This document shows, one piece after another, positions 2,703-3,623 of a DNA stretch of 9,325 bases (position 1 is its first letter; each line of letters starts with the position of its first letter). Made by a program: the position numbers and the translations under genes. The notes beneath the pieces were generated by a model. It made no database searches. It saw only the letters and a list, made by a program, of their open reading frames with translations, and was not told the origin of the DNA. The stretch is from Streptosporangiaceae bacterium (GTDB lineage Bacteria; Actinomycetota; Actinomycetes; Streptosporangiales; Streptosporangiaceae), in the NCBI GenBank assembly GCA_030043395.1, contig JASHXW010000111.1:1-9325 (forward strand), given 5' to 3'.

Positions 2703-3623
2703 ATGTTCGAGCGGTTCACCGACCGGGCCCGGCGGGTAGTCGTGCTGGCTCAGGAAGAGGCCAGGCTGCTCGGGCACAACTTCATCGGCACTGAGCACAT
2801 CCTGCTCGGGCTAATACACGAGGGTGAGGGAGTCGCGGCCACAGCGCTGGAATCCCTCGGCATCGGACTTGAGGCAGTACGCGAACGGGTCACCGAGATC
2901 GTCGGCGTAGGAACGAAAGCGCAGGCCGGGCACATTCCCTTCACGCCCAGGGCGAAGAAGGTGCTCGAGCTCTCGCTGCGCGAGGCGCTGCAGCTTGGCC
3001 ACAACTACATCGGCACCGAGCACATCCTGCTCGGCCTGATCAGGGAAGGCGAGGGAGTCGCCGCTCAGGTCCTGGTCTCGATGGGAGCGGACCTTAACCG
3101 GGTCCGCCTGCAGGTCATCACGCTGGTCCACCCCTCCGCTGGTGCTCAGGCAGGACCGCCGGGCGAGGAGGCGCGCCTTGCGGGACCCCTGCCGGCGGCA
3201 CCGAGTCGCAGGGAGCTCGTGCTCATGTCCGGCATCCGCCAGCGCATGTCGGCCCTGGAGGCCCGGCTGGCGCTGCTTGAGTCACGGGCCGGAACCGGCC
3301 CGGATTCCAGCGAACTGGACAAGGAGATAGCCAAGGTCCGCGGCGAGAGGCAGTCCGCCGCCAACCTCCAGGACTACGAGAACGCTGCCGTCTTGCGGGA
3401 CAGGGAACGTGCTCTGCTCGAGCAGCAGAGCACGCGCCGCGAGGAATGGCTGGCGGACAACCCGAGCCTGCCCGAGCTGGCCAAGACGGTCCGCGAGCTC
3501 GGCGAGGAGGTCGCACGGCTGCGCCGGCTGCTGCGCGAGCCGCCGCAGGCCGAGCAGCTTGCCGGCGAGGTGGCCGAAACGGGCCAGGCAGCTGGCGGCG
3601 ACTCAGCCGAGACGGGCGAGTGA
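2703..3623 (+). CDS. ClpC N-domain plus middle-domain protein lacking AAA+ modules
   Basis: A 306-aa cytosolic protein. Residues 1-145 are an almost canonical actinobacterial ClpC1 N-terminal domain with both Clp repeats (NFIGTEHILLGLIHEGEG at 26-43; NYIGTEHILLGLIREGEG at 101-118). Residues ~203-250 match the coiled-coil/UVR middle domain of ClpC (ELDKEIAKVRGERQSA, then QDYENAAVLRDRERALL). The first ATPase module, which separates these regions in ClpC, is missing, as is everything after the M-domain: no Walker A/B, no ClpP-docking loop. A linker (~146-200) and an Ala/Glu-rich coiled tail (~256-306) complete it. F2, F80, K85 and E89, the ClpC1 residues I recall as contacting cyclomarin, are all retained. 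The ATG at 2703 gives the family's MFERF start with GGGGTG 6 nt upstream; a GTG at 2694 would add three residues. It cannot unfold proteins. I infer a role as adaptor, substrate-binding competitor or antibiotic sponge, as proposed for mycobacterial ClpC2. Confidence 0.9.
   Translation: MFERFTDRARRVVVLAQEEARLLGHNFIGTEHILLGLIHEGEGVAATALESLGIGLEAVRERVTEIVGVGTKAQAGHIPFTPRAKKVLELSLREALQLGHNYIGTEHILLGLIREGEGVAAQVLVSMGADLNRVRLQVITLVHPSAGAQAGPPGEEARLAGPLPAAPSRRELVLMSGIRQRMSALEARLALLESRAGTGPDSSELDKEIAKVRGERQSAANLQDYENAAVLRDRERALLEQQSTRREEWLADNPSLPELAKTVRELGEEVARLRRLLREPPQAEQLAGEVAETGQAAGGDSAETGE

What the first reader, a model, noticed from the sequence alone, without database searches (positions are those of the whole stretch)
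2703..3623. A ClpC mimic: intact ClpC N-domain joined to the ClpC middle domain with both ATPase modules absent
The sequence shows a near-canonical ClpC1 N-domain (1-145) and a recognisable ClpC M-domain (about 203-250), with no Walker motifs or ClpP loop. It is therefore a full-length motor-less protein rather than a truncated ClpC: the N-domain and M-domain are non-adjacent in ClpC yet fused here by a different linker. In ClpC the N-domain binds substrates and adaptors and is the site of cyclomarin-type antibiotics; F2, F80, K85 and E89 are kept. The M-domain mediates ClpC-ClpC contacts and adaptor control. I infer a regulator that could sequester substrates or antibiotics, or join and modulate ClpC1 through the M-domain. 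Mycobacterial ClpC2 is a precedent for an N-domain decoy, but I do not know of the N+M arrangement being characterised.
Basis: partly seen in the sequence, partly recalled or inferred. Interest (0 to 1): 0.75.

Follow-up and report, generated by a model that had tools for sequence, protein, structure and literature searches.

The report
Motor-less ClpC look-alike protein family
A soil actinobacterium carries a small protein made of the docking and self-contact parts of the ClpC protein-shredding machine without its motor, one of a small patchy family that probably tunes or protects that machine.

Summary
Window 2703-3623 (+) encodes a complete 306-aa protein: a near-canonical ClpC N-domain, a new linker helix, a ClpC middle (UVR) domain and a conserved tail helix, with no ATPase module. 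It is not a broken clpC. The same order recurs in many metagenomic proteins and in 15 of 341 genomes of one family (Streptosporangiaceae by a record title). Apart from the centre genome it was not found in a 396-genome phylum sample or a 296-genome class sample. Full or partial clpC lies elsewhere in 14 of the 15 carriers. N-domain ligand-site residues are kept. So, largely, are the three middle-domain residues that make ClpC's inhibitory head-to-head contacts (Y/F225, R232, D233). In 2 of 11 genomes tested over the whole N-domain, and over 107 bases in a third, the N-domain DNA was copied from the cell's own clpC while the middle domain stayed divergent. Two similar relatives have a decayed N-domain but keep the middle domain and tail, which argues against a pure antibiotic sponge. 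Best reading: a ClpC partner that docks through the middle domain and presents a spare N-domain. Binding and direction of effect are inferred. Closest known: mycobacterial ClpC2/ClpC3. New variant of a known kind.

The parts
2703..3623 (+). whole gene, 306 aa, motor-less ClpC look-alike (alternative in-frame GTG start at 2694)
2703..3131 (+). ClpC N-domain (residues 1-143): two Clp_N repeats with the ligand-site residues kept
   Evidence: Pfam; PDB sequence match; Foldseek; residue counts
3132..3206 (+). variable low-confidence linker (residues 144-168), 30% mean pairwise identity in the 44-row alignment
3207..3296 (+). family-specific long helix before the M-domain (model helix 169-196; consensus RL..IE.RVGTGPD)
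3285..3458 (+). ClpC middle domain / UVR hairpin (residues 195-252)
3375..3377 (+). codon of Y225, aligned ungapped with M. tuberculosis ClpC1 F444 (S. aureus F436), the middle-domain tip aromatic
   Evidence: alignment; Y or F in 44 of 44 and 18 of 18
3396..3401 (+). codons of R232 and D233, positions of S. aureus R443/D444 that make head-to-head contacts
3459..3539 (+). conserved tail helix (residues 253-279; consensus after W249: AAxHPDLPSLAE..R.LG.EV.RLR.LLR)
3540..3620 (+). variable acidic, low-confidence C-terminal end (residues 280-306)

Best explanation
It is a non-ATPase partner of ClpC. It docks on ClpC hexamers or spirals through its M-domain tip, using the same aromatic/Arg/Asp contact that ClpC M-domains use with each other, and it presents a spare ClpC N-domain that can bind the same ligands: unfolded or phosphoarginine substrates, adaptors and cyclic-peptide antibiotics. 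By occupying M-domains it would alter ClpC's self-inhibited head-to-head resting state, most simply by capping M-domains and favouring active hexamers, or else by stabilising the resting state. Shown: domain make-up, conservation of the contact and ligand residues, clpC in most carrier genomes, and renewal of the N-domain from clpC in some genomes. Inferred: binding to ClpC, the direction of the effect, ligand binding, and any role of the tail in self-association.
For: N-domain and M-domain are two of the pieces that build ClpC's resting state in print (PMC5699869 passages; PMC12583610 passages and sections 9, 11 and 12). M-domain contact residues: Y/F225, R232 and D233 each 44 of 44 in the alignment I chose; 18 of 18, 16 of 18 and 15 of 18 in the census set. 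N-domain sites used in the resting state or by ligands (T6, E31, K85, E106, F2, F80): 44 of 44 each. The N-domain is kept while the M-domain diverges: median best identity to held ClpCs 98.6% against 49% over 44 proteins. Two similar relatives, P0121 and P0122, keep M-domain and tail with a decayed N-domain, so the M/tail half seems to be selected in its own right. N-domain copying from own clpC in G025 and G569 and over 107 bases in G110. Plant CLPC1 traps several UVR proteins (PMC8889267, passages).
Against: No binding data. The FE...RD pattern is also the general UVR consensus (recalled), so its conservation may be structural. In G087 and G036 R232 is S, and D233 is E in G087; between these two mimics dN/dS is 0.56 (14 synonymous, 21 non-synonymous changes) while their ClpC has dN 0.001 at dS 0.073: constraint is weak on that branch. 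In the census set H77 and P79 hold in only 13 of 16 and V13 in 11 of 14. The gene is in only 15 of 341 genomes of the family. It has no conserved clp neighbourhood, and the pair of upstream elements found before 7 of 7 clpC genes is missing in 14 of 15 mimics, the window included; the exception is a scaffold chimaera. P0121 still scores as Clp_N in the precomputed Pfam list.
Confidence: 0.5

Rival explanations
1. Ligand sponge: the protein soaks up ClpC-directed natural products (cyclomarin, ecumicin, rufomycin type) or excess phosphoarginine proteins through its N-domain, as ClpC2 does with cyclomarin; the M-domain and tail only make it oligomeric.
For: N-domain ligand residues kept; precedent: ClpC2 protects M. 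smegmatis from cyclomarin (PMC10030653, passages and part 2 of 8); N-domain renewed from own clpC in G025 and G569, which keeps decoy and target alike; soil actinobacteria live among producers of such peptides (established knowledge).
Against: P0121 and P0122 keep M-domain and tail with a decayed N-domain. M-domain contact residues are largely kept, which a sponge does not need. No ClpC2-like N-terminal part.
Confidence: 0.27
2. Adaptor: it carries specific substrates to ClpC (substrate on the N-domain or tail, docking through the M-domain), like UVR-bearing adaptors such as McsA or plant ClpF.
For: UVR/M-domain present; UVR proteins are trapped by plant CLPC1 (passages); variable acidic end, and extra N-domain repeats in P0003, P0014 and P0015, could diversify cargo.
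Against: No other cargo domain by Pfam; an N-domain near-identical to ClpC's own gives no new specificity.
Confidence: 0.13
3. By-product: short-lived duplicates of clpC parts with no settled role, continually born and decaying.
For: Patchy distribution; some copies are broken or cut (for example G047b); weak constraint in G087/G036; no gene in a fixed place beside the mimics.
Against: Tail and M-domain motif shared across deeply diverged copies; N-domain silent sites saturated against ClpC while protein identity stays 86-89% in G101 and G108, which needs long purifying selection.
Confidence: 0.1

Closest known systems
Mycobacterial ClpC2 (and ClpC3), motor-less ClpC N-domain proteins
   Same: ClpC-type N-domain with the cyclomarin-site residues, no AAA modules, a clpC elsewhere in the genome; a decoy role is plausible
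   Different: ClpC2 has an N-terminal dimerising part before its N-domain-like half and represses its own expression (PMC10030653; the repression was seen as a section heading only); the window protein starts with the N-domain and carries an M-domain and tail after it. Its N-domain is much closer to ClpC1 (240 bits) than to the ClpC2 entries (84-103 bits)
ClpC / ClpC1 AAA+ unfoldase
   Same: N-domain 81-84% identical to the M. tuberculosis ClpC1 N-domain structures; M-domain homologous over 58 residues
   Different: no AAA1 or AAA2, Walker motifs or ClpP-docking part; other linker; extra helix and tail
UVR-domain adaptors of ClpC (McsA, plant ClpF and the UVR proteins trapped by CLPC1)
   Same: a UVR hairpin outside the unfoldase, without ATPase
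   Different: those have other partner domains (DUF151 and others; zinc-finger and YccV-like parts recalled), not a ClpC N-domain
Plant ClpT and the double Clp-N proteins
   Same: Clp_N repeats without a motor (4y0c, 4y0b, weak hits)
   Different: distant sequence (E 1.6e-7 and 4.9e-7), M-domain not matched; they bind the ClpPR core (recalled)

Membership tests
ClpC AAA+ unfoldase | ClpC N-domain (two Clp_N repeats) | tested here: met
ClpC AAA+ unfoldase | M-domain with tip aromatic and R/D contact residues | tested here: met
   Y225, R232, D233 in the window protein: alignment; relatives
ClpC AAA+ unfoldase | two AAA+ modules with Walker motifs and ClpP docking part | tested here: not met
   no AAA family at E<=0.1; no Walker pattern in 72 of 72 tailed proteins; convergent gene directly downstream
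ClpC2-type decoy | N-domain with the cyclomarin-site residues and no motor | tested here: met
   F2, F80, K85 and E89 present; 44 of 44 each
ClpC2-type decoy | N-terminal dimerising part before the N-domain | tested here: not met
   the N-domain begins at residue 1; no such Pfam hit
ClpC2-type decoy | binds ClpC-directed antibiotics and is induced by them | not testable with these tools
   needs protein and cells
UVR adaptor of ClpC | UVR hairpin outside the unfoldase | tested here: met
   Pfam UVR 22.5 bits against 21.5
UVR adaptor of ClpC | binds ClpC and delivers substrate | not testable with these tools
   no complex prediction offered; needs a bench test

The most novel reading that the evidence does not exclude
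A dedicated dummy-subunit regulator of an AAA+ protease: the cell keeps a detached copy of the two parts with which ClpC locks itself into its resting state, refreshes the N-domain half from its own clpC by gene conversion, and uses it to set how much ClpC is locked or active while also shielding ClpC from N-domain-directed peptides.
Probability: 0.3. Interest if true: 0.75.

Novelty: new variant of a known kind. Interest (0 to 1): 0.58.

Why it matters
ClpC is an antibacterial target whose activity is set by N-domain and M-domain contacts. A natural protein that holds those two parts without the motor would be a ready-made probe of that switch and a possible natural shield against ClpC-directed antibiotics. 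The pattern of a divergent M-domain under an N-domain copied from the host's own clpC would be an instance of a decoy or dummy subunit kept like its target.

Tried and rejected
Broken clpC or frameshift: rejected; the reading frame is complete, a convergent gene follows directly, and the same order recurs in relatives on large contigs (for example P0107, contig of 4,799,201 bases, and P0115, 1,413,503 bases). Assembly chimaera as a general cause: rejected for the same reason, but one census copy (G046, L161) is a chimaera by my reading: two N letters inside the N-domain and clpC-like upstream DNA before it. It is included in the residue counts; its N-domain should not be trusted.

Conserved operon: none found. 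Neighbour frames of the window, 13 mimic stretches and 7 clpC stretches were clustered by my own simple frame caller. Between mimic stretches only members of large common families recurred (a loose cluster of ABC transporter ATPases and sigma factors in 5 stretches; MFS transporters in 4 stretches, 3 of them checked by Pfam; a helix-turn-helix/DUF5753 regulator in G110 also occurs near clpC in G101 and G110), none in a fixed place; not every cluster was named. Three stretches share nothing but the mimic (L149, L151, L164). G108 (L159) shares HAD, YCII and sigma-factor genes and an end fragment with the window, in another order. Mobile element: the 5 plasmid-collection matches to the M/tail half cover 34-37% of it; in the phage collection 0 of 32 records cover 80% of the protein.

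clpC-type upstream pair (ClgR-like box plus GGAAC within 250 bases): before 7 of 7 clpC genes; in 1 of 15 mimics, the chimaera. A ClgR-like box alone occurs in 4 more mimics (G108, G026a, G087, G036). The patterns are recalled, not from a call.

A second protein search with only the C-terminal half found the query and 5 relatives; its word filter limits it. Paper searches for a published N+M protein; none of the listed titles or abstract beginnings describes one. Five papers were opened in part: PMC10030653 (passages and part 2 of 8), PMC12583610 (outline, passages and sections 9, 11, 12), and PMC5699869, PMC8889267 and PMC10864484 (passages).

Full report
What is there. The frame 2703-3623 (+) is complete and gives 306 aa. 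Pfam finds Clp_N (1.3e-34) and UVR (9.6e-5, just above its cut-off) and no AAA family at E<=0.1. The PDB sequence search matches the N-domain of M. tuberculosis ClpC1 with 240 bits and its residues 414-471 with 35 bits, ungapped, so a whole M-domain is present, joined by a different linker. The AF2 model (44-row alignment, mean pLDDT 81, pTM 0.51; the five models range from 64 to 81) has a confident N-domain (residues 1-142), a long helix 169-196 (pLDDT about 63-71), the M hairpin 203-221/225-252 and a tail helix 256-278 (about 71-78); the relative placement of the parts is not reliable. Foldseek puts the N-domain on M. tuberculosis ClpC1 N-domain structures with TM up to 0.97 by target length.

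A family, not an accident. A search of a very large protein set lists 120 best hits; a pattern for the tail marks 72 of 120, of which 68 begin MFERFTD and none has a Walker pattern. The other 48 include pieces of ClpC, further N-domain proteins and some members whose tail departs from the pattern. Some carry extra N-domain repeats (P0003, P0014, P0015). Several lie on contigs of 0.8 to 4.8 Mb (P0094, P0115, P0107). With a profile of the M/tail half (A1, 13 rows), 15 of 341 genomes of one family have a match at E<=1e-20, 19 places in all, in frames of 147-461 aa, some cut by contig ends. In a phylum sample only the centre genome matched, 1 of 396 at E<=1e-19. A full-length profile (A2) in a class sample of 296 genomes matched end to end (1-284) only in the centre genome; the other listed matches stop at position 179 or before, mostly in clpC-size frames (not all matches were listed). 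Twelve genomes reached through clpC loci had only frames of 793-947 aa. The counts are lower bounds, since strict limits were used: G023 and G111 had weaker candidates. The family is Streptosporangiaceae by the record title of L006, whose genome is G003, and the family draw of G003 returned G101; sources name two relatives as Streptosporangiaceae (P0051) and Streptosporangiales (P0060). Of the 15 carriers, 7 hold a full-length clpC (91-100% identical to that of G047, which is one of them), 7 hold clpC in part or in pieces, and in G040 none was found.

N-domain: kept, and sometimes copied. Over 11 genomes with both N-domains, fourfold-site identity between mimic and own clpC is 44-61% in nine: G101 52, G108 44, G047 51, G083 61, G029 59, G087 47, G036 49, G785 54, G031 58. 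That is the level between clpC genes of different genomes (55 pairs, median 53%, minimum 38%, maximum 97% for the close pair G087/G036). In G025 it is 89% (65 of 73) and in G569 76% (57 of 75), against at most 61% and 58% with any other genome's clpC in the set; binomial P against that maximum is 9.8e-8 and 8.8e-4, uncorrected for 11 tests, and 0.3 or more in the other nine. In G025 the alike stretch runs from the ATG to about codon 144, 95% identical over 431 bases, with unrelated upstream DNA (19 of 100) and an M-domain at 34 of 74 residues. In G110 both contigs end inside the N-domain and share 107 identical bases that stop at the N-domain end. I read this as copying from clpC by gene conversion, or as a fresh fusion of an N-domain copy to an old M/tail half; the data do not tell which. 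In the other nine the saturated silent sites beside 57-90% protein identity show old copies, under purifying selection where identity is high. Over 44 proteins (the window and 43 relatives, chosen by me from the 120 listed), the best N-domain identity to 127 held clpC loci (15 distinct N-domains) has median 98.6%, 28 of 44 at 97% or more and 8 of 44 at 100%; the M-region median is 49%. The list is ranked by similarity to the query, so this favours good N-domains. The window itself stands at 86.7% and 51.9%.

Residues. In the 44-row alignment F2, T6, V13, Q17, R21, E31, H77, P79, F80, K85, E89 and E106 are 44 of 44, R8 and L88 43 of 44; in the M-domain Y/F225 44 of 44 (38 Y, 6 F), E226, R232, D233 and W249 44 of 44. 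In the census set, 18 sequences of the 20 looked for including the window (G031 and one G046 piece were lost by my filter): Y/F225 18 of 18, E226 15 of 18, R232 16 of 18, D233 15 of 18, W249 18 of 18; of those with a letter there F2 13 of 14, V13 11 of 14, E31 14 of 15, H77 13 of 16, P79 13 of 16, F80 14 of 16, K85 15 of 15, E106 15 of 15 (it includes the G046 chimaera and cut copies). S. aureus F436, R443 and D444 mediate M-domain head-to-head contacts, and B. subtilis ClpE has a tyrosine at the F436 place (PMC5699869 passages). T7, R9, E32, K85 and E106 of the N-domain take part in resting-state control, and phosphoarginine or cyclic peptides release it (PMC12583610). The match of S. aureus to window numbers rests on an offset of 8 for the M-domain (D356/D364 in that paper; F444) and on the alignment ends for the N-domain. 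V13, Q17, H77, P79 and L88 as antibiotic contacts are recalled.

Evidence that the M/tail half matters by itself. P0121 and P0122, similar to each other, keep M-domain and tail but have a decayed N-domain; P0122 has no Clp_N hit in the precomputed list, P0121 still has one. W249 and parts of the tail are kept in distant copies. Against strong constraint everywhere: G087 against G036 gives dN/dS 0.56 (N part 0.49, M+tail 0.57; 14 synonymous and 21 non-synonymous changes) while ClpC between them has dS 0.073 and dN 0.001.

Context. No gene keeps a fixed place beside the mimics; what recurs and was named belongs to large common families, and G108 alone shares HAD, YCII and sigma-factor genes with the window. 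The pair of a ClgR-like box and GGAAC seen before 7 of 7 clpC genes is absent from the window. The same genomes hold other motor-less N-domain proteins: N-domain plus a third Clp_N-like repeat; N-domain plus a short coiled coil; and one with a helix-turn-helix-like part before the N-domain, resembling the build of ClpC2.

Reading. The parts retained are those through which ClpC binds ligands and contacts itself. The most economical function is a ClpC partner that docks by the M-domain and offers a second N-domain. No binding or activity has been tested. It is not a ClpC (no motor) and not a ClpC2 (no N-terminal part). It works most like these and like UVR adaptors, and I file it as a new variant of motor-less ClpC N-domain proteins.

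Noticed in passing
L225:2471-3178 (phage Myrna gp251) and L226:2501-3166 (phage Phabba): Two mycobacteriophages carry a ClpC N-domain 72-76% identical to the window's, followed by a short end and no AAA part in the gene: a possible phage decoy or modulator of host ClpC1. One paper search listed nothing.
   Followed up: partly
L205, L206, L207, L208, L209, L211, L212: A second motor-less type: ClpC N-domain plus a third Clp_N-like repeat (LSEAARLAGxQPVGSHHLLLAAL) and a further C-terminal part, seen in 7 of the 15 carrier genomes (not searched for as such).
   Followed up: no
L213, L215, L216, L217, L222: N-domain followed by a short coiled coil; L222 also has a UVR-like stretch.
   Followed up: no
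L210: In G029 a second N-domain plus UVR-like stretch plus tail-like end, besides the copy in L156.
   Followed up: no
L224: Helix-turn-helix-like part followed by a ClpC N-domain, resembling the build of mycobacterial ClpC2.
   Followed up: no
P0003, P0014, P0015: Relatives with one and a half or two N-domains in tandem before the M-domain.
   Followed up: no
L161:6406-6407: Two N letters inside the N-domain, with clpC-like upstream DNA before and a mimic end after: probably a clpC/mimic scaffold chimaera caused by the alike N-domains.
   Followed up: partly
window 2654-2689: TCGCGA occurs 49 and 19 bases upstream of the ATG (and once more at 237); it is also upstream of 3 of the other 14 mimics looked at (G029, G785, G031).
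   Followed up: no
window 5301-6992: YCII-domain gene followed by a sigma-70-type factor with DUF6596 and TPR-like end; the pair recurs in G108 beside its mimic.
   Followed up: no
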